Assembly: GCF_900108345.1 (NCBI RefSeq)
Contig: NZ_FNVV01000012.1
Location: forward strand, 905,852-969,851
Reading direction: 5' to 3'
Length of the DNA stretch: 64,000 bases
Source: Bacteroides ndongoniae
GTDB taxonomy: Bacteria; Bacteroidota; Bacteroidia; Bacteroidales; Bacteroidaceae
Both the position numbers and the translations under genes were made by a program. Shown here piece after piece: positions 2,614 through 55,240 of the stretch. The notes under the pieces were generated by a model. It was not told the DNA's origin, did no database searches, and was given only the letters and a program-made list of their open reading frames with translations. Every line of letters begins with the position of its first letter. The first letter of the stretch is position 1.

Positions 2614-2616
2614 GTT

Positions 2617-3080
2617 TAAATGAAGAATTAAGAATGAAGAATGAAGAATTTTCCCGATGTGTTCCTGAGTTTATTCTTCATTCTTCTTCAGGTTATTTTT
2701 TACCGTTCGGATGGAGGAAACAAGCAGGGCGATGAGTTCGCCGCAGTCGTTTTCCATGCTTTCGAACGAATAGTCGTTTATGTATTGTGAGTCGTGAAGC
2801 AAATTGAGCCAGTAATCGGTTTCATTTGCTTCCTTCAGCGCTACGCTCAGTTTATTAATGAAGTCGGCTTGGCTTTGGGCAAACTCTGATTCACGAATCA
2901 GTGCGCCGATGGCCGTACCCGAACGAAGAATTTGTTTACTCAGCACGAACTCTTGTACCTCTTCTCTCAAGTACCTGTTCATGCCAATCACCCGCAATGC
3001 AAATGCATAGCTTTTGGCATGCAGCAACGAGTCTTTTCTGTTGCGTGAATTCTTCATTCTTCGTTCTTCATTCTTCATTA
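2617..3080. repeat. Four-helix-bundle cassette bounded by inverted AAGAATGAAGAAT arrays
   Basis: A tandem array of AAGAATGAAGAAT-type units lies at about 2619-2652, with an oppositely oriented partner at about 3051-3080. Together they form imperfect inverted repeats of about 34 bp around a 464-bp segment. A short extra inverted copy at 2671-2690 contains the stop codon of the enclosed gene. The right array contains the gene's start codon. The segment separates argD and argC, which are otherwise neighbours in the same operon. Confidence 0.75.
2671..3078 (-). CDS. Four helix bundle protein (TIGR02436-like)
   Basis: This 135-residue protein resembles the four-helix-bundle family first noted in 23S rRNA intervening sequences. 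Recognisable parts are KSYAFALRVIGMNRYL, SKQILRSGTAIGALIRESEFAQS (a longer stretch, about residues 43-65), ADFINKLSVALKEANETDYWL and SIRTVKNN. Members are small and mostly helical, and some relatives bind nucleic acid; no enzyme activity is known. The first codons (MKNEERRMKN) and the last (KKNEE-stop) are encoded by the flanking AAGAATGAAGAAT repeats. The start could be the ATG at 3078, which overlaps the argC stop, or the one at 3057. It has no evident role in arginine synthesis and looks like an insertion into the operon. Confidence 0.8.
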   Translation of the reverse strand: MKNEERRMKNSRNRKDSLLHAKSYAFALRVIGMNRYLREEVQEFVLSKQILRSGTAIGALIRESEFAQSQADFINKLSVALKEANETDYWLNLLHDSQYINDYSFESMENDCGELIALLVSSIRTVKNNLKKNEE

Positions 3081-4046
3081 AAATGCACTCGGCTTCAGCC
3101 TCAGTCCCACCGTCTCTTCGAGGTTGAACATCAGGTTCATGTTGTGAACGGCCTGGCCGCTGGCACCCTTCAGCAGGTTGTCGATGCACGAGATGATGAG
3201 CAGTTTGTCGCCGTGCTTTTCCAAGTGGATGAGGCACTTGTTGGTGTTCACCACCTGCTTCAGGTCGATGTTCTTGTCCACGATGTGCGTGAAGGAGTCC
3301 TTGGCATAGTATTCCTCGTACATGCGGCGGATTTCTTCCAAGGAAACTTTGGTTTTCACCACACAGGTGGCGAAGATGCCGCGCGGGAAGTCGCCACGGT
3401 AGGGGATGAAGTCAATTTCCGAGTCGAAGCTGTTCTGAAGCTGGCGCAGCGACTGCTTGATTTCGGGCACGTGCTGGTGTTCGAAAGCCTTGTAGACGCT
3501 GATGTTGTTGTTCCGCCAGCTGAAGTGACTCGTGGCACCCGGCTTCACGCCCGCTCCGGTGCTGCCTGTGATGGCGTTCACCATGATGTCGTCGTTCAGC
3601 ATCAGGTTCTTGGCTAGCGGCAGCAGAGCCAGCTGGATGCAGGTGGCAAAGCAGCCCGGATTGGCTACATGCTTGGCCGTGCACGTGGCGCGACGGTTCA
3701 GTTCGGGCAGACCGTAGATGAAGTCGTGGTCGTCGCTCTTCAGACGGTAGTCCATCGAGAGGTCGATGATTTTCAAGTCCTCGGGGACGTTGTGGCTTTC
3801 CATGAACTTGCGTGTGTCGCCGTGGGCGGTGCAGAAGAAGAGCACGTCAATCTCGTCCAGCGGCAACTGGTCGGTAAAGGTCAGGTCGGTCTCGCCGTAC
3901 AGACCTTCGTGTACGTCGGTTATTTTGTTTCCGGCGTTGCTCGCACTGTTGATGAAGACGATTTCCGCCTCCGGGTGGTTCAGCAGCAGACGGATCAGTT
4001 CGCCTGCCGTGTAGCCGGCCCCGCCGATAATTCCTACTTTTATCAT
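3078..4046 (-). CDS. argC: N-acetyl-gamma-glutamyl-phosphate reductase
   Basis: This 322-residue enzyme should reduce N-acyl-glutamyl phosphate with NADPH to the semialdehyde, the third step of arginine synthesis. The N-terminus MIKVGIIGGAGYTAGELIRL is the NADP-binding glycine motif plus the YTAGEL signature of ArgC. The catalytic cysteine is Cys132 in VANPGCFATC. GSTGAGVKPGATSHFSWRNN further supports the family. The start ATG follows directly from the motif. It sits between pspC upstream, with a 15-bp gap, and the four-helix-bundle cassette downstream, whose possible start overlaps its stop codon. Confidence 0.97.
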   Translation of the reverse strand: MIKVGIIGGAGYTAGELIRLLLNHPEAEIVFINSASNAGNKITDVHEGLYGETDLTFTDQLPLDEIDVLFFCTAHGDTRKFMESHNVPEDLKIIDLSMDYRLKSDDHDFIYGLPELNRRATCTAKHVANPGCFATCIQLALLPLAKNLMLNDDIMVNAITGSTGAGVKPGATSHFSWRNNNISVYKAFEHQHVPEIKQSLRQLQNSFDSEIDFIPYRGDFPRGIFATCVVKTKVSLEEIRRMYEEYYAKDSFTHIVDKNIDLKQVVNTNKCLIHLEKHGDKLLIISCIDNLLKGASGQAVHNMNLMFNLEETVGLRLKPSAF

Positions 4047-5505: not shown

Positions 5506-5660
5506 ATTAAGAATGAAGAATTAAGAATGAAGAATGGCTTTGTCGCTCTTCTTTCCCTTTTCTTCATCGCTGTTTTTGCTTTATTTGTTGTTTCTTTGTC
5601 GAATGAATCCTGCGTCCTGAATCTGAAAATGCTTCATTCTTCATTTTTCATTCTTTATTT
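5506..5660. repeat. Inverted pair of AAGAATGAAGAAT arrays, no gene inside
   Basis: Units such as AAGAATGAAGAATTAAGAAT at 5506-5535 face reverse-complement units at 5632-5660. About 95 bp without a convincing ORF separate them. The pair lies between argG and the GNAT gene. It resembles the ends of the four-helix-bundle cassette nearby, but empty. Confidence 0.7.
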
Positions 5661-11364: not shown

Positions 11365-11466
11365 AGGACACTTGCCATTCATTTATGGGACACTTGCACG
11401 GCTCGCGAGCAATGCAAGTGTGGCTCGTGAGCCACACAAGTGTCTCTCGCGAGCACCACTTGTATC
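11365..11466. repeat. CTCGCGAG palindromic repeat cluster, copy 2
   Basis: Three units with CTCGCGAG or CTCGTGAG cores and CACTTGCAC or GCAAGTGTG arms lie between the yitT promoter and tRNA-Gly. The rest of this 311-bp gap is AT-rich with no gene that I can support. Confidence 0.75.
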
Positions 11467-20159: not shown

Positions 20160-20560
20160 CCTCCCGCTGAATTCCTCGAAACAGATGCCGGAACTGCATA
20201 AAACGGCGCTAAAACCGCATGAATATACGCTGCGGATGCCGGAATTGCATCTTTTTGCCGTCTGAAACGCTTGTGCGGAACGTGCTCTGTGCTTGTCCGG
20301 TTGCCGAACAACGCTTGTGTGGCTCGGCAACAATGCTTGTGCGGCTCGGCCGGAAGGTATGTTATAGGGAGGAACAAAGCTTTCGGCGGGGCATTCGGGC
20401 GCTTTTTTCGTCTGTTTTGGTTGTAAGTATTTCGCTATCTGTTTGGCTGATAGACGAATAGTGCGTGTGCGCTTTGAAAAAATCGGCTGCCCGTCCTTCT
20501 GGCCGCAAATACGCGATTCTCGCGGACTTGGGTGTGCAAAGTGTCAGAATGATAGTTGGC
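20160..20560. repeat. Long intergenic repeat R1
   Basis: This non-coding stretch shares at least four collinear anchors with 25660-26090: GCATGAATATRCGC (20217), CGCTTGTGTGGCTCG (20312), ATTTCGCTATC (20429) and AAATACGCGATTCTCGCGG (20507). Offsets between anchors are 95, 117 and 78 bp here versus 95, 138 and 77 bp in the other copy. It contains diverged units of the CTTGTGNGGCTCG repeat family (copy 3). It ends about 110 bp before the flavodoxin-like gene. Confidence 0.7.
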
Positions 20561-21385: not shown

Positions 21386-23389
<2,004 letters not shown>

Positions 23390-25659: not shown

Positions 25660-26090
25660 CTGACAGACCTGTTTTGCAAAAACGGGCTGAAAGCGTCGGA
25701 AATGGGCGAAACCGGTGTTGAATCTGCATGAATATGCGCCCGTTATGCGGGTTTTATGTGTTTTTTGTCCCCAAAATGCTTGTTCGGCGCGCGCTCCGTG
25801 CTTGTTCGGAGCGGGAACTACGCTTGTGTGGCTCGCGAACCGTGCTTGTGTGGTTCGTCAGCAATGCTTGTTGCGCTCGACGGGATGGCTTTCCGGCGGC
25901 GAAAACAGGGCTTTCGGGGGAGTCGGAGGGGAGAAGTTTTTCTCTTTCGGATGTAAGGATTTCGCTATCGTGCTAAGAGGCAGCGAGATGCGGATTTTCG
26001 CTTCCAAAATCCGGAACGGTCGGGCCTTCGGACGGAAATACGCGATTCTCGCGGCGTTGGCCGAGCAAAGTGTCACATTGTCAAGGACGG
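25660..26090. repeat. Long intergenic repeat R2
   Basis: The second copy of the element described at 20160-20560, with anchors at 25726, 25821, 25959 and 26036. It contains diverged CTTGTGTGGCTCGCG units (copy 4 of that family). A reading frame of 193 codons crosses it but shows no family, and I do not call it a gene. The remainder of the 833-bp gap between the peptidase and purH holds a terminator and the purH promoter. Confidence 0.7.
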
Positions 26091-27837: not shown

Positions 27838-28010
27838 ATAATGAAGAACGAAGAATGAAGAATGAAGAATTTCCATGCGGCGGCTCGTAGTGGCCTACCC
27901 GAATTCTTCATTCTCCATTCTTCATTCTTCATTCAAAAAGATTCTTCATTCAAAAAGATTCTTCATTCAAAAAGATTCTTCATTCTTCATTTATAATTCT
28001 TCATTTATAA
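27838..28010. repeat. Inverted AAGAATGAAGAAT arrays between purH and mreB
   Basis: Forward units at about 27838-27870 face inverted units from about 27901 to 28010. The inverted side includes a 17-bp motif, ATTCTTCATTCAAAAAG, repeated three times head to tail. The spacer of about 30 bp contains no ORF. Confidence 0.75.
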
Positions 28011-38371: not shown

Positions 38372-38454
38372 CGAAAAAGAAACGAGAAAACCATACGACT
38401 TCCCTACTTCTTGCTTTCGAGGCTTCCGGCAGGCATGTTTGCAGGGCGTTTGAG

Positions 38455-38556
38455 CCACACAAGTGTTGCTCGTGAGCCGTGCAAGTGTTGCTCGCGAGCC
38501 GTACAAGTGTCTCTCGCGAGCCGTGCAAGTGTCCCACAAATGCCATGCAAGTGCTG
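38455..38556. repeat. CTCGCGAG palindromic repeat cluster, copy 5
   Basis: Four or more units in tandem: GAGCCACACAAGTGTTGCTC, GTGAGCCGTGCAAGTGTTGC, GCGAGCCGTACAAGTGTCTC and GCGAGCCGTGCAAGTGTCCC. The cores are CTCGCGAG or CTCGTGAG. It lies in the divergent region between metF and the secreted protein at 38928. The rest of this 615-bp gap is AT-rich, with a TGTTTAGTTCA motif repeated at about 38646 and 38687. Confidence 0.8.
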
Positions 38557-46704: not shown

Positions 46705-46806
46705 AACACTTGTGTGGCTCGTGAGAGACACTTGTACGGCTCGTGAGCAACACTTGCACGGCTCACGAGCCACACTTGTGTTGCTCAAACGGTTTGCAAG
46801 TGGCTT
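46705..46806. repeat. CTCGCGAG palindromic repeat cluster, copy 6
   Basis: Three to four units of ACACTTGTGTGGCTCGTGAG type, with GTGAG or CACGAG cores. It lies between the convergent zinc-ribbon and TonB-receptor genes. It occupies much of the 330-bp gap, which contains no gene that I can support. Confidence 0.75.
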
Positions 46807-50960: not shown

Positions 50961-52562
50961 TTAAAGAACTTCGCAATACTGTGCTGCCGCCTCGGCACAC
51001 CGTTCTCCGTCTACTCCGGCAGAGACGATGCCGCCTGCATAACCGGCTCCTTCGCCGCAGGGGAAGAGGCCGCGAAGGCGGACGTGTTGCAGGGTGTCGC
51101 GATCGCGTACAATGCGTACGGGTGCCGATGTACGGGTTTCGACGGCTATCATCACGGCTTCGTTGGTCAGGAAGCCGCGGGCATTGCGGCCGAACTGCTG
51201 GAAACCTTTGGCCAGGCGGTTGGCGATGAACGGAGGCAGCCAGAAGTGTAGGGGCGAAGCTATCAGCCCCGGAGCATACGACGACTCGGGCAGGTCGGCA
51301 CTGAGGCGGCGGTTCACAAAGTCGGCCATGCGCTGGGCTGGTGCCGTCTGACGGCGGTTGCCCTGCTGCCAGCAGAGGCGTTCAAGGTGTTCCTGCAGGA
51401 AAAGCATGTTCAAAGAAGAACCTCCTTCGCCTGTCTGTAGTAATTCTTCATTCTTCATTCCTAATTCTTCATTCTCCAAGTCTTCCGGTCTGATTTCCAC
51501 CACCATTCCGCTGTTGCTCCAGCGCGAGCCACGGTTGCTGGGACTCATGCCGTTCACCACAATCTGTTCGGGACCGCTGGCTGCGGGCACGATGAAGCCA
51601 CCGGGGCACATGCAGAAGCTATAAACGCCACGGCCTTCGACCTGCGTGACAAAACTGTATTCGGCTGCGGGCAGATACTTGCCGCGTCCGTTTTTGTTGT
51701 GATACTGTATCTGATCGATGAGGTGGGCGGGATGCTCCAGTCGCACACCTACGGCGATACCTTTGGCTTCTATCTCTACGTTGTTGGCGGCCAGCCAGCG
51801 ATAGACGTCGCGGGCAGAGTGGCCGGTAGCCAGGATGACAGGACCGAGGAATGTCTGTCCCGTGTTGGTTTCGATGCCCTTTACTTCATCGCCTTCGATG
51901 AGCAGGGCGTCCATACGGGTCTGGAAGTGAACTTCGCCACCGCACTGTAGGATGGTGTTGCGCATGTTTTCGATGACGCGGGGCAGCTTGTCGGTGCCGA
52001 TGTGCGGGTGGGCGTCCACCAGAATGGAGGTGGATGCGCCGTGCTGGCAGAAGATGTTGAGTATCTTGTCCACGTTGCCGCGCTTCTTGCTGCGGGTATA
52101 TAGTTTGCCGTCGGAGTAGGCACCTGCGCCGCCTTCGCCGAAGCTGTAGTTCGACTCAGGGTTTACGGCTTGCGTGCGGCTTATCTGGGCGAGGTCTTTC
52201 TTGCGTTCGCGTACGTCCTTGCCGCGCTCTACCACGATGGGGCGCAGTCCCAGTTCGATGAGGCGCAGGGCGGCGAATAGTCCGCCGGGGCCAGCACCTA
52301 CGACGATGACCTGGGGGCGGCCTTCTACATTATTATATACGGTGTGCCGATATTCGTCGTCTTTGGGCACTTCGTTGACGTAGGCACGTACGGTGAGGTT
52401 GACAAACACCGTCCGCTGGCGGGCGTCGATGCTCCGCTTCAGGATGCGGGTGGCGTTTATTTCTTTCTTGTTCAAGCCTTTTTCGTTGACCAGATAGTCA
52501 ATCAGGCGTTGTTCGTTGGCGGCTACTTCGGGTAGCACTCTGATGTTATATTCTTGTATCAT
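50961..52562 (-). CDS. FAD-dependent oxidoreductase of the COG2509 type
   Basis: This 533-residue flavoprotein has an N-terminal extension of about 90 residues, then the FAD motif VIVVGAGPGGLFAALRLIEL and VVERGKDVRERKKDL. GEGGAGAYSDGKLYTRSKK and VILATGHSARDVYRWLAANN follow, as in COG2509 proteins. The C-terminal part has GEGAGYAGGIVSAGVDGERC. The substrate is unknown. Residues about 360-375 (NEELGMKNEELLQ) come from an AAGAATGAAGAAT array inserted in frame. It starts 11 bp before the GxxExxY cassette. Confidence 0.92.
   Translation of the reverse strand: MIQEYNIRVLPEVAANEQRLIDYLVNEKGLNKKEINATRILKRSIDARQRTVFVNLTVRAYVNEVPKDDEYRHTVYNNVEGRPQVIVVGAGPGGLFAALRLIELGLRPIVVERGKDVRERKKDLAQISRTQAVNPESNYSFGEGGAGAYSDGKLYTRSKKRGNVDKILNIFCQHGASTSILVDAHPHIGTDKLPRVIENMRNTILQCGGEVHFQTRMDALLIEGDEVKGIETNTGQTFLGPVILATGHSARDVYRWLAANNVEIEAKGIAVGVRLEHPAHLIDQIQYHNKNGRGKYLPAAEYSFVTQVEGRGVYSFCMCPGGFIVPAASGPEQIVVNGMSPSNRGSRWSNSGMVVEIRPEDLENEELGMKNEELLQTGEGGSSLNMLFLQEHLERLCWQQGNRRQTAPAQRMADFVNRRLSADLPESSYAPGLIASPLHFWLPPFIANRLAKGFQQFGRNARGFLTNEAVMIAVETRTSAPVRIVRDRDTLQHVRLRGLFPCGEGAGYAGGIVSAGVDGERCAEAAAQYCEVL
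51441..51475. repeat. AAGAATGAAGAAT array inside the COG2509 gene
   Basis: TAATTCTTCATTCTTCATTC with a second CTAATTCTTCATTCTC unit. It is read through in frame as NEELGMKNEELL. The repeat is otherwise intergenic in the window. Confidence 0.8.
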
Positions 52563-52572
52563 ATGTTTTATT

Positions 52573-53030
52573 AAACGCAGATTATCGCAGATTATCGCAA
52601 ATTAAAGGACATATCTTCTTATGCCATTCTGCAAATTCATATTATAGAAATTAATAAGCAAGCCTAAATGAACTTGGCTCAATCTTAAATAAGTCATTAT
52701 CTGTGCTGTATGGATAGGTAAAATTTTCTCCACAGTTTTCAGTTCGATAATGATTTTGTTCTCTACTAAGATATCGATGCGGTAACCGCAATCCAATGTT
52801 ATACCTTTATATAAGACCGGTAAGGGCTTTTGCCGTTCGTAATGGATATTTTTTCCACTCAGCTCATAACACAGACAGGCTTCATACACACTTTCCAATA
52901 AACCAGGTCCCAGCTCTTTATGTACATTATATGCACATCCCAGTACTTGATAGGATAATTCGTTTGTTTCTTTATCTATATTTACCATAGTAAATTTACT
53001 TTGCGTCAATCTGCGTTAATCTGCGTTTTA
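52573..53030. repeat. GxxExxY cassette bounded by inverted CGCAGATTA arrays
   Basis: The left array is AAACGCAGATTATCGCAGAT and on to 52604. The right array at about 52997-53030 is its inverted counterpart, ending TAATCTGCGTTTTA. Both consist of two or three units of about 10 bp. They enclose a 458-bp segment holding one gene, whose stop codon is in the left array. The segment separates a flavoprotein gene and radA on the same strand. Confidence 0.8.
52602..52988 (-). CDS. GxxExxY protein, PD-(D/E)XK nuclease-like
   Basis: This 128-residue protein has the name-giving motif GLLESVY at residues 29-35. A later YRIDILVENKIIIELKTVE has Asp72, Glu82 and Lys84 in the PD-(D/E)XK arrangement, with a following QIMTYL. 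No function is established for the family; nuclease activity is inferred from the motif. I start at the ATG at 52988; a TTG upstream lies within the repeat. The stop codon lies in the flanking array. Its GC content is below that of its neighbours. It resembles a mobile insertion between the flavoprotein gene and radA. Confidence 0.88.
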   Translation of the reverse strand: MVNIDKETNELSYQVLGCAYNVHKELGPGLLESVYEACLCYELSGKNIHYERQKPLPVLYKGITLDCGYRIDILVENKIIIELKTVEKILPIHTAQIMTYLRLSQVHLGLLINFYNMNLQNGIRRYVL

Positions 53031-53035
53031 TATCT

Positions 53036-54403
53036 CTATCCAAACAGTGCCCTAAATGCTTCTTCCACCTTCCTCACCGGCACCAGTTCGATGCTCAGTT
53101 TCTTCGTGTTCAGCCCCTGCAGGTTGTATTTGGGCAGGAGGAACTGTTTGAAACCCAGTTTCTCGGCCTCGCCGATGCGTTGCTCGATGCGGTTCACGGG
53201 ACGGATTTCGCCCGAGAGACCTATCTCGCCTGCCATGCAGACGCCCGGCTCAATCTCCGCATCCATGTTGCTGGAGAGGATGGCGCTGATGACGGCCAGG
53301 TCGATGGCCGGGTCATTCACCTTGAGGCCGCCCGCAATGTTGAGGAAAACGTCTTTCTGCGCCAACTTAAAGCCTACACGCTTTTCGAGCACGGCCAGCA
53401 GCATGTTCATGCGGCGGATGTCGAAGCCCGTGGCCGAGCGTTGCGGATTGCCGTAGACGGCGGAACTGACCAGTGCCTGTGTCTCGATGAGGAAAGGACG
53501 TACACCTTCGATGGCCGAGGCGATGGCCACACCACTCATGCCTTCGTGATCCTGACTCAGCAGCAGTTCGGAGGGGTTGCTCACTTGGCGCAGACCGTCC
53601 TGACGCATTTCGTAGATGCCCAGTTCGGCGGTGCTGCCGAAGCGGTTCTTGATGCTGCGCAGAATGCGGTACATGTAGTGCTGGTCGCCCTCGAACTGAA
53701 GGACGGTATCGACGATGTGTTCCAGCACTTTGGGACCTGCGATGCTGCCTTCCTTGTTGATGTGGCCAATCAGGATGACTGCTGTATGCGTTTCCTTGGC
53801 GAAGCGCAGAATGCTGGCGGCACACTCGCGCACCTGGGCGATGCTGCCCGGCGAGGATTCCAGTGCTTCGGTCGAAATGGTTTGTATGGAGTCGATGATG
53901 ACCAGGTCGGGGCGTGTGTTCTTGATGTGGACGTAGATCTGTTCGAGCGACGTCTCGCACACGATGAGACAGTCCGACGATTGTTTCGTCAGCCGTTCGG
54001 CACGCAGTTTCAGCTGTCGCGCGCTTTCCTCGCCCGAGATGTAGAGGATGCGTTTCTCGGGCATCCGCAGGACGGTTTGCAGCACCAGTGTCGACTTGCC
54101 GATGCCCGGCTCTCCGCCTATCAGCACCAGCGACCCTTGCACCAGTCCGCCACCCAGTACGCGGTTCAGTTCGGCGTCGTGCAGGTCGATGCGGGGTTCG
54201 TCGGCCGCTTCAATCTCGTCTAGGGTGACGGGCTTGGACTTGACGGTCTCGATGCCCGAAACGGGGCGTTTATTGGTGGGCTCCTTGCGTACGATTTCTT
54301 CGACGAAGGTATTCCACTGTCCGCACGCGGGGCACTTGCCCTGCCATTTGGGCGACTCTTGTCCGCAGTTGCTGCATACGTAGACGGTTTTCTCTTTGGC
54401 CAT
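53036..54403 (-). CDS. radA: DNA repair protein RadA
   Basis: This 455-residue RecA-like protein begins with a zinc finger, CSNCGQESPKWQGKCPACGQ. Walker A is GGEPGIGKSTLVLQ, the RadA motif is KNRFGSTAELGIYE, and a Lon-like C-terminal domain ends it (VNDPAIDLAVISAILSS ... LPKYN). It should act in branch migration during recombination. It starts at MAKEKTVYVCSNC, which is typical. A TACCTTTG box precedes it. Its end is 5 bp from the GxxExxY cassette. Confidence 0.96.
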   Translation of the reverse strand: MAKEKTVYVCSNCGQESPKWQGKCPACGQWNTFVEEIVRKEPTNKRPVSGIETVKSKPVTLDEIEAADEPRIDLHDAELNRVLGGGLVQGSLVLIGGEPGIGKSTLVLQTVLRMPEKRILYISGEESARQLKLRAERLTKQSSDCLIVCETSLEQIYVHIKNTRPDLVIIDSIQTISTEALESSPGSIAQVRECAASILRFAKETHTAVILIGHINKEGSIAGPKVLEHIVDTVLQFEGDQHYMYRILRSIKNRFGSTAELGIYEMRQDGLRQVSNPSELLLSQDHEGMSGVAIASAIEGVRPFLIETQALVSSAVYGNPQRSATGFDIRRMNMLLAVLEKRVGFKLAQKDVFLNIAGGLKVNDPAIDLAVISAILSSNMDAEIEPGVCMAGEIGLSGEIRPVNRIEQRIGEAEKLGFKQFLLPKYNLQGLNTKKLSIELVPVRKVEEAFRALFG

Positions 54404-54442: not shown

Positions 54443-54478
54443 TATTCACCACAGAGTACACAGAGTTTCACGGAGTTT
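54443..54478. repeat. CACAGAGTACACAGAGTTTCACGG repeat
   Basis: Degenerate tandem units of CACAGAG or CACGGAG lie between divergent radA and the carbonic anhydrase gene. It resembles the short tandem repeats elsewhere in the window but shares no sequence with them. Confidence 0.5.
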
Positions 54479-54561
54479 TTTTACTTTTGTTCGTGCGGTG
54501 CACGGGCCGACGGCAGTGTTCCGCGATGTGAATATGAACCGATTCTTTAACAACTGAAATT

Positions 54562-55133: not shown

Positions 55134-55240
55134 TGGGACACTTGCACGGCTCGCGAGCAACACTTGTACGGCTCGCGAGCCGTGCAAGTGTCCCACAAAT
55201 GTATTGCAAGTGTGGCTCGCGGCACTTGCAAGTGGGGTTC
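55134..55240. repeat. CTCGCGAG palindromic repeat cluster, copy 7
   Basis: The first 68 bp form a near-perfect long inverted repeat: TTTGTGGGACACTTGCACGG ... CCGTGCAAGTGTCCCACAAA, with CTCGCGAG cores on both sides. A further unit, GCAAGTGTGGCTCGCG, follows. It fills the gap between two convergent genes. Confidence 0.85.

What the first reader, a model, noticed from the sequence alone, without database searches (positions are those of the whole stretch)
52573..53030. GxxExxY nuclease-like gene in a second, parallel cassette with a different repeat
Seen: inverted arrays of CGCAGATTA units enclose a 458-bp segment with one gene, whose stop lies in one array. The PD-(D/E)XK-like residues Asp72, Glu82 and Lys84 are present. 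The size (458 vs 464 bp), the inverted-array ends and the insertion between co-directional genes match the four-helix-bundle cassette, though repeat and protein differ. Inference: the two are members of one class of repeat-ended cassettes carrying nucleic-acid-acting small proteins.
Basis: partly seen in the sequence, partly recalled or inferred. Interest (0 to 1): 0.78.

Follow-up and report, generated by a model that had tools for sequence, protein, structure and literature searches.

The report
Operon-hopping cassettes with self-matched repeat ends
A small nuclease-like gene here sits in a cassette with inverted short-repeat arrays at both ends, an arrangement we find around two unrelated protein families in many bacteria, and these cassettes are likely small mobile elements that carry no known transposase.

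Summary
The GxxExxY gene (52602-52988, minus) lies between inverted degenerate arrays, 52569-52606 and 52995-53032. All 2 GxxExxY and 4 four-helix genes of this genome have inverted arrays, each with its own unit. Among genus hits scored, arms recur in 17 of 19 GxxExxY and 23 of 28 four-helix rows, against 8 of 1434 genes in general. GxxExxY loci from many phyla mostly carry CACAGAG-like arms.

At radA the cassette is present in 5 of 30 same-genus loci read; others show a bare junction, an array without a gene, or another neighbour. Four-helix cassettes in cyanobacterial plasmids have clean empty sites at 91-95% identity; no target duplication is visible. Close protein relatives share the unit, even at some unrelated sites. 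Cassettes lie in sense orientation between co-directional genes (53 against 5), starting a few bases after a stop codon. Arm mismatches show no G-U bias, against upkeep as an RNA stem.

Best reading: a transposase-free class of mobile cassettes whose protein is predicted to recognise its own array, working like REPIN-RAYT without a HUH enzyme. Movement by the protein is inferred. Dispersed gene-less arrays fit only partly.

The parts
52569..52606 (-). 3' array arm of the GxxExxY cassette (units near CGCAGATTA(T)); holds the gene's stop codon
52995..53032 (-). 5' array arm of the GxxExxY cassette, inverted relative to the other; starts 3 nt after the radA stop
52602..52988 (-). GxxExxY / PDDEXK_3 gene (128 aa from ATG; ORF from TTG at 53009)
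53036..54403 (-). radA, the gene upstream of the cassette
   Evidence: TIGR00416 588 bits
50961..52562 (-). FAD-dependent oxidoreductase, the gene downstream of the cassette
   Evidence: hits below cut-off only, best TIGR00275 E 1e-6; its counterpart is annotated 'FAD-dependent protein' beside radA-GxxExxY in B. finegoldii
2615..2650 (-). 3' array arm of the four-helix cassette (AATGAAG units)
3048..3083 (-). 5' array arm of the four-helix cassette; holds the stop codon of argC
2698..3018 (-). four-helix-bundle gene (TIGR02436 / PF05635 23S rRNA-intervening sequence protein), HMM match
5506..5658 (.). inverted AATGAAG array pair without a gene (gap 93 nt)
27840..27933 (.). inverted AATGAAG array pair without a gene (gap 30 nt)
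54446..54483 (+). solitary CACC-ended CACAGAG array just upstream of radA

Best explanation
These are small cassettes of one gene between inverted arrays of short repeats, present or absent at the same operon junctions in related genomes, and they are likely mobile elements whose encoded protein (GxxExxY nuclease or four-helix protein) is predicted to recognise the array unit at its own ends. Shown: the arms; the match of unit to protein; the insertion points a few bases after a stop codon in sense orientation; the empty sites; and gene-less array pairs elsewhere. Inferred: that GxxExxY, predicted to be a small Cas4/lambda-exonuclease-like nuclease, binds the CACAGAG-like sites of the two arms, where the inverted arrays can be drawn out as a hairpin or cruciform, and cuts or resects there so that the cassette or a gene-less derivative can be copied or moved. 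Inferred too: that sense insertion at a junction lets the gene be expressed from the host operon, and that the four-helix protein, kin of the bAvd and 23S-IVS proteins, does the same job with a partner nuclease not yet known.
For: Arms: 6 of 6 in the own genome; 17 of 19 GxxExxY and 23 of 28 four-helix genus rows at score 15 or more; GxxExxY in named genomes of many phyla 52 of 79, against 58 of 624 mismatched pairs; 8 of 1434 genes in general. Unit follows protein: ten pairs at 70-85% identity score on average 1.0 (GxxExxY, 6) and 1.1 (four-helix, 4) of self, pairs at 30-50% about 0.3-0.4, orientation kept; four of those ten pairs are at different sites. Same junction reached by separate subfamilies. 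Empty sites: radA; Nostoc and Calothrix plasmids. Orientation 53 (+,+) against 5 (-,-) of 72; GxxExxY across phyla 30 against 2 of 46. No G-U excess: 81 of 192 transitions, CI 0.34-0.51. Dispersed arrays: AATTGAC counts rank 1, 3, 4 and 6 of 41 in the four genomes read to have that unit in a cassette (p 0.003 against other four-helix genomes); CACAGAG pairs in 35 of 82 GxxExxY genomes against 8 of 66 without. Nuclease fold.
Against: No movement, binding or cutting was observed. Own CGCAGATTA and AGCTACA units have no dispersed copies in the 464-kb sample, AGTTAAGG no more than its reversed control; G168, with neither gene, still has CACAGAG-type arrays. Genomes not seen to hold an AATGAAG- or AATTGAC-unit cassette can be rich in those arrays (G184 369 and 135, G163 176 AATGAAG). 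Six of the ten close pairs that share units also share the site, where common descent suffices; at 60-70% identity the picture is mixed (mean 0.6, single pairs 0.2-1.2). No target duplication and slightly ragged junctions do not look like a classic transposase. Order-level GxxExxY loci show arms at 16 or more in only 15 of 31. The radA and sufCD copies could be old insertions with losses; the tree does not settle it. Sense orientation is also usual for ordinary operon genes. As RNA the cassette folds with the arms as its outer stem (z -5.5).
Confidence: 0.5

Rival explanations
1. The arms act in RNA: they pair around the gene in the operon transcript and are cut by RNase III, as in 23S rRNA intervening sequences, so the cassette is removed or insulated from the mRNA; matching arms are kept by selection for pairing.
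For: The four-helix gene belongs to PF05635, the IVS protein family; the Coxiella IVS has a 28-bp terminal inverted repeat, heptamer repeats before its S23p start and RNase III excision (PMC4990558, passages); the cassette RNA folds with its arms as outer stem, z -5.5.
Against: No excess of G-U-compatible mismatches on the sense strand: 81 of 192 transitions. Units differ between cassettes although any pairing arms would do, and follow the protein. No Rfam match at 52300-53300.
Confidence: 0.16
2. The arrays are operator sites for autoregulation by the encoded protein; cassettes are inherited vertically with frequent loss and are not mobile in their own right.
For: Unit covaries with protein; same-site copies in several genus members at radA and sufC|sufD; in GxxExxY arms a fixed word recurs at 8-11 nt with variable linkers, as binding sites would.
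Against: Related cassettes with one unit at unrelated sites; one junction reached by separate subfamilies; clean empty sites in 91-95% identical plasmids; dispersed gene-less pairs.
Confidence: 0.16
3. The arrays are mobile or slippage-prone repeats spread by some other host activity, and the gene between them is a passenger.
For: For AATGAAG 16 array sites were found in the own 464-kb sample outside the cassettes, and gene-less pairs exist; G168 has GxxExxY-type arrays without the gene; two other ORFs also lie between inverted arrays (L145, L146).
Against: Few other genes have such arms (8 of 1434), unit and protein change together, and array abundance rises with presence of the gene.
Confidence: 0.17

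Closest known systems
REPIN-RAYT (REP sequences with a REP-associated tyrosine transposase)
   Same: Single-copy gene next to its own short repeats, dispersed inverted pairs without a gene, repeat type matched to the protein (PMC3116915, passages).
   Different: No tyrosine transposase: the proteins are PDDEXK_3 or PF05635; ends are tandem 7-10-mers instead of one palindrome; insertion between co-directional genes; the gene cassettes themselves are present or absent at a site.
23S rRNA intervening sequences (IVS) with the S23p / IVP gene
   Same: Same protein family for the four-helix type, about 430-470 bp, inverted ends, heptamer repeats next to the start.
   Different: Sits between protein genes, not in 23S rRNA; no sign of RNA-level selection on the arms; GxxExxY cassettes carry an unrelated protein.
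Cyanobacterial STRR and other dispersed heptamer repeats (TAACTGA, GGGACCG, GGGNATC)
   Same: Tandem heptamers at many, mostly intergenic, places per genome, without an established mechanism of spread (PMC4679880, PMC2700814, PMC4692102; passages).
   Different: The passages read describe arrays alone; here such arrays end a gene cassette, in 5 of 5 cyanobacterial four-helix loci fetched of 31 matching records, the five amounting to three independent cassettes. That STRRs are gene-less forms is untested.
Cas4 and lambda-exonuclease-like PD-(D/E)XK nucleases
   Different: 128 aa, alone in the cassette; its neighbours here are radA and an oxidoreductase. CRISPR context was not searched for.
bAvd of diversity-generating retroelements
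   Same: Four-helix family kin: bAvd profile hits below its cut-off for two of four own proteins; homology noted in PMC10053308 (passages).
   Different: No reverse transcriptase in the cassette.

Membership tests
GxxExxY (TIGR04256 / PF13366) | profile score over the curated cut-off | tested here: met
   158.4 against 35 bits; 151.4 against 22 bits
GxxExxY (TIGR04256 / PF13366) | catalytic-type residues D, ExK, QxxxY | tested here: met
   invariant in 34 of 34 aligned members
REPIN-RAYT | tyrosine (HUH) transposase encoded between the repeats | tested here: not met
   only PDDEXK_3 or PF05635/bAvd hits
REPIN-RAYT | dispersed inverted pairs of the same repeat | tested here: inconclusive
   clear for AATGAAG, CGCGGAC and AATTGAC; none for CGCAGATTA or AGCTACA in the sample
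REPIN-RAYT | repeat type matched to the protein | tested here: met
   cross/self about 1.0-1.1 on average in ten pairs at 70-85% identity, six of them at a shared site
23S rRNA IVS element | location inside 23S rRNA | tested here: not met
   between radA and an oxidoreductase; other own sites are protein genes; no Rfam match at 52300-53300
23S rRNA IVS element | encodes the PF05635 protein | tested here: met
   met for the four own four-helix cassettes; not for the GxxExxY cassette, which has PF13366
23S rRNA IVS element | RNase III excision of the transcript | not testable with these tools
   arms can pair as RNA; no RNA data
Insertion sequence or MITE with a transposase | target-site duplication | tested here: not met
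   none seen by eye at one Calothrix and one Nostoc site with empty counterparts; not testable at base level for the window cassette
Insertion sequence or MITE with a transposase | transposase gene, or one acting in trans | tested here: inconclusive
   none inside; a trans-acting one elsewhere was not searched for
Diversity-generating retroelement | reverse transcriptase beside the Avd-like gene | tested here: not met
   single gene between the arms in each of the six own cassettes; no search for a reverse transcriptase elsewhere
Cas4 | Cas4 profile and CRISPR context | tested here: inconclusive
   fold alike, weak profile hit E 0.0019; context here radA-oxidoreductase, CRISPR not searched

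The most novel reading that the evidence does not exclude
A transposase-free class of mobile elements found in many phyla: one small protein, either a Cas4-like mini-nuclease or an Avd/IVS-like four-helix bundle, reads its own short word in inverted arrays at both ends, drops the cassette in sense orientation just behind stop codons of core operons, and seeds the genome with gene-less array pairs. 23S rRNA intervening sequences and the unexplained heptamer repeats of cyanobacteria and Bacteroidetes would be products of the same machinery.
Probability: 0.37. Interest if true: 0.93.

Novelty: categorically new. Interest (0 to 1): 0.85.

Why it matters
Two widespread, little-studied gene families (in 82 and 105 of 148 genomes of this order) would gain a shared biology. 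The spread of dispersed heptamer arrays, for which the passages read give no settled mechanism (PMC4679880, PMC4692102, PMC2700814), and the origin of 23S intervening sequences (PMC4990558) would become testable with one protein and one DNA word. A protein of 110-130 residues that picks its own repeat and possibly moves DNA into operon junctions without a transposase would be a new mode of mobility and a compact DNA-recognition system. That the unit changes together with the protein offers a natural specificity series.

Tried and rejected
Rejected: arrays as general intergenic noise (8 of 1434 genes). Arms kept for RNA pairing, though RNA folding is possible, so held as a rival. A strict rule that a genome's dispersed arrays always match its resident cassettes: only partly true. 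Two further ORFs between inverted arrays (L145:16116-16856, L146:14516-15313) were not counted as cassettes: the first has no NCBIfam hit, the second resembles polysaccharide export proteins below their cut-offs, so chance placement of solitary arrays is likely. Monophyly of radA-site copies: unresolved. No PDB relative of GxxExxY by sequence. No Rfam hit at 52300-53300. The PADLOC scan gave only weak Cas4 hits for GxxExxY and none for the two four-helix proteins. Plasmid search for GxxExxY: 8 records, no empty-site pair tried.

Literature: 'GxxExxY' 2 papers (one by passages, the other by listing only), neither shown to concern repeats; 'TIGR04256' 0; TIGR02436, PF05635, PDDEXK_3, PF13366 2 papers (one by passages, one by listing); further searches, seen as listings. 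Apart from the heptamers and inverted repeat of the C. burnetii IVS (PMC4990558, passages), I found no report of inverted arrays around these genes; the library is open-access only, and no paper was read whole.

Limits: neighbour ORFs were called by a simple longest-ORF rule. Scripts dropped short flanks, rows below score 15, three rows of unclear strand and one duplicate (L102). Same-site copies were counted apart, so the orientation p-values are too small. Array-abundance tests ignore phylogeny, and five genus four-helix matches got no locus and were not read. The word counted was chosen after seeing the arms. On re-checking I lowered the main confidence from 0.52 to 0.50 and the novel case from 0.38 to 0.37, because six of the ten close pairs share their site.

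Full report
What is there. The window is G000:C10:905852-969851 of a 4.95-Mb genome. Between radA (53036-54403, minus) and a FAD-type oxidoreductase gene (50961-52562, minus) lies one gene, 52602-52988 from its ATG, a clear GxxExxY protein (TIGR04256, 158 bits) and PDDEXK_3 member. Two inverted array arms enclose it: 52569-52606 and 52995-53032, 38 nt, 87% complementary.

The whole genome has 2 GxxExxY and 4 TIGR02436 genes. All six lie between inverted arrays, and all six units differ: CGCAGATTA, CGCGGAC/CACGGAT, AGCTACA, AGTTAAGG, AATTATC/AATGGAG, AATGAAG.

How often. I scored the local alignment of the left flank with the reverse complement of the right flank (250 bp each). Order-level hits plus the own six: 15 of 31 GxxExxY and 24 of 33 four-helix loci reach 16, against 53 of 930 and 29 of 1056 mismatched pairs; 848 control windows in the same loci had a 99th percentile of 15. 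Genus-level rows: 17 of 19 GxxExxY and 23 of 28 four-helix reach 15; these include broken copies and one near-duplicate (L102/L103), one fragment (L114) was not scored, and five further four-helix matches got no locus. General control: 8 of 1434 genes in samples of five genomes, one of them the window gene itself.

GxxExxY loci from named genomes of many phyla (best 80 of 579 confirmed, one dropped as short; 300-bp flanks): 52 of 79 reach 15 and 38 of 79 reach 18, against 58 and 23 of 624 mismatched pairs. The word CRCRGAK occurs 5.9 times per kb in the 5' flank (sense) and 6.0 in the 3' flank (antisense), against 0.5-0.7 far away; the opposite strands are also raised, 2.0 and 3.0, as some loci hold several array pairs. 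Runs of two or more units were found in 60 of 80 5' flanks and 57 of 80 3' flanks; 230 of 235 spacings are 8-11 nt; AC precedes the outermost unit in 33 of 60 and 34 of 57, giving ends such as TTCACCACAGAG. Not every GxxExxY cassette follows this word: L100, L101, L104 and L111 have AGACATAAGAACA-like arms. Variable linkers between a fixed word look more like binding sites than like slippage repeats. Four-helix loci in cyanobacterial plasmids: 5 of 5 fetched, of 31 matching records, have inverted heptamer arrays; two are near-identical copies in one strain and two share a site, so three cassettes are independent.

Unit follows protein. Among 29 GxxExxY and 45 four-helix cassettes with arms, between-cassette arm similarity relative to self averages 1.0 (6 pairs) and 1.1 (4 pairs) for proteins 70-85% identical, about 0.6 at 60-70%, and 0.25-0.41 below 50%, apart from two GxxExxY pairs below 30%, also 0.39; the strand is kept. 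Six of those ten closest pairs share their site (L099/L103, L097/L113, L001/L095, L129/L130, L006/L138, L003/L115), four do not. Six related pairs at different sites that keep the unit are L120/L137, L122/L123, L136/L124, L099/L110, L103/L110 and L100/L111; their flanking ORFs share no similarity at E 1e-8, though L123 and L136 end soon after the cassette, so that only the upstream side was comparable there. Other pairs at 64-66% have different units (L120/L136, L137/L138, L018/L028). At one site, own and L095 proteins (70% identical, both at radA) have different units, while each one's two arms agree. The two arms thus change together.

Presence and absence. Of 39 same-genus genomes with radA, 30 loci were returned and read, own included. 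Five carry the cassette (own, L067, L072, L079, L091), ten have junctions of 6-49 nt without arrays, L084 has a lone arm, L090 has an inverted four-helix-type pair without a gene, and in seven the oxidoreductase was not found downstream. Calothrix: cassette between an integrase gene and the next gene; three plasmids at about 91% identity have 3 nt between stop and ATG. Nostoc: two occupied plasmids, two empty ones at about 95%, and one at 87% with a gene-less array pair. By eye no target duplication is seen; a few bases at the junctions differ.

Recurrent sites. The junction after cysD is occupied by L137 and by L044 and L063, from separate main clades of the four-helix tree; that after serC by L124 and L062, again separate; that before sdhB by L041/L116, L118 and L045 in different clades (the gene names were tested on L137, L124 and L116, the others linked by flank similarity; L041 and L063 fell below the arm threshold used for context). 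Own sites include sufC|sufD, an electron-transfer flavoprotein-like|acyl-CoA dehydrogenase-like pair, purC, pyrI and argC.

Orientation. In 72 cassettes with arms and enough flank, 53 lie (+,+) and 5 (-,-) relative to the cassette gene, 14 mixed or undetermined (p 3e-11 against random orientation, too small because same-site copies count apart). The 5' arm starts a median 3 nt after the stop (38 of 53 within 12 nt) and the 3' arm ends a median 8 nt before the next start. Cross-phylum GxxExxY: 30 against 2 of 46. Ordinary operon genes would show the same; I read it as dependence on the host promoter, through insertion preference or selection. That step is inferred.

DNA or RNA. If arms were kept as an RNA stem, transitions between them should be the G-U-compatible kind on the sense strand. 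They are not: 81 of 192, 95% CI 0.34-0.51 over 76 cassettes. This speaks for DNA-level matching, although the RNA would fold with the arms as outer stem (z -5.5).

Dispersed arrays. AATGAAG: 258 overlapping pattern matches in the own genome, none for the reversed pattern. In the own 464-kb sample, sites outside the cassettes (reversed control) were 16 (1) for AATGAAG, 7 (0) for the sufCD GxxExxY unit, 4 (0) for AATTATC, 3 (3) for AGTTAAGG, 0 for CGCAGATTA and 0 for AGCTACA; in G159 8 (2) and 0 (0), in G185 1 (0) for their own units. Over 41 genus genomes, AATGAAG matches have median 44 with any four-helix gene and 0 without (p 4e-4); AATTGAC matches are 27-201 in the four genomes read to have that unit in a cassette, against median 0 elsewhere (p 6e-4; p 0.003 against other four-helix genomes), with G184 (135) and G172 (30) high as well. 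CACAGAG pairs occur in 35 of 82 genomes with GxxExxY and 8 of 66 without (p 5e-5); the cassette's own arms contribute, but at 5 or more matches it is still 23 of 82 against 3 of 66. These tests ignore phylogeny. Against: G184 and G163 are rich in AATGAAG without that unit in a cassette that I read, and G168 has GxxExxY-type arrays without the gene.

Comparison. It works most like REPIN-RAYT, but the defining tyrosine transposase is absent. The four-helix half is kin to the 23S rRNA IVS, but sits in protein operons and shows no RNA-level selection. I therefore file it under neither. Since two unrelated proteins share one architecture and each known kind of mobile element tested here fails a defining feature, I rate the class categorically new, while the mechanism remains inferred.

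Noticed in passing
window 11400-11459, 20307-20350, 25815-25879, 38453-38553, 46705-46779, 55138-55180: Dispersed 22-bp arrays (ACACTTGCACGGCTCGCGAGCA type) with a TCGCGA palindrome; 39 non-overlapping arrays of period 22, of any sequence, in the 464-kb sample.
   Followed up: no
window 23010-23138: Inverted pair GCCTCACCCCCGACCCCTCTCCC, 57 nt apart, near-perfect; looks like a small inverted-repeat element.
   Followed up: no
window 51443-51475: An ATTCTTC heptamer array of the four-helix type lies inside the oxidoreductase ORF.
   Followed up: no
L145:9736-10132: Three alternating inverted copies of GTTACAGTATTACAGTTACAG without a gene.
   Followed up: no
L145:16053-16959: Inverted AATGAAG arrays enclose a 246-aa ORF without an NCBIfam hit; a further AATGAAG array pair stands at its end.
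   Followed up: partly
L331:1100-1360: A Nostoc plasmid holds a gene-less array pair at the junction where relatives have the four-helix cassette or nothing.
   Followed up: partly
L328: A 24.8-kb Bacteroides finegoldii record named plasmid carries asparaginase, radA, GxxExxY and the FAD gene, likely chromosomal; the GxxExxY arms are CACAGAG type.
   Followed up: no
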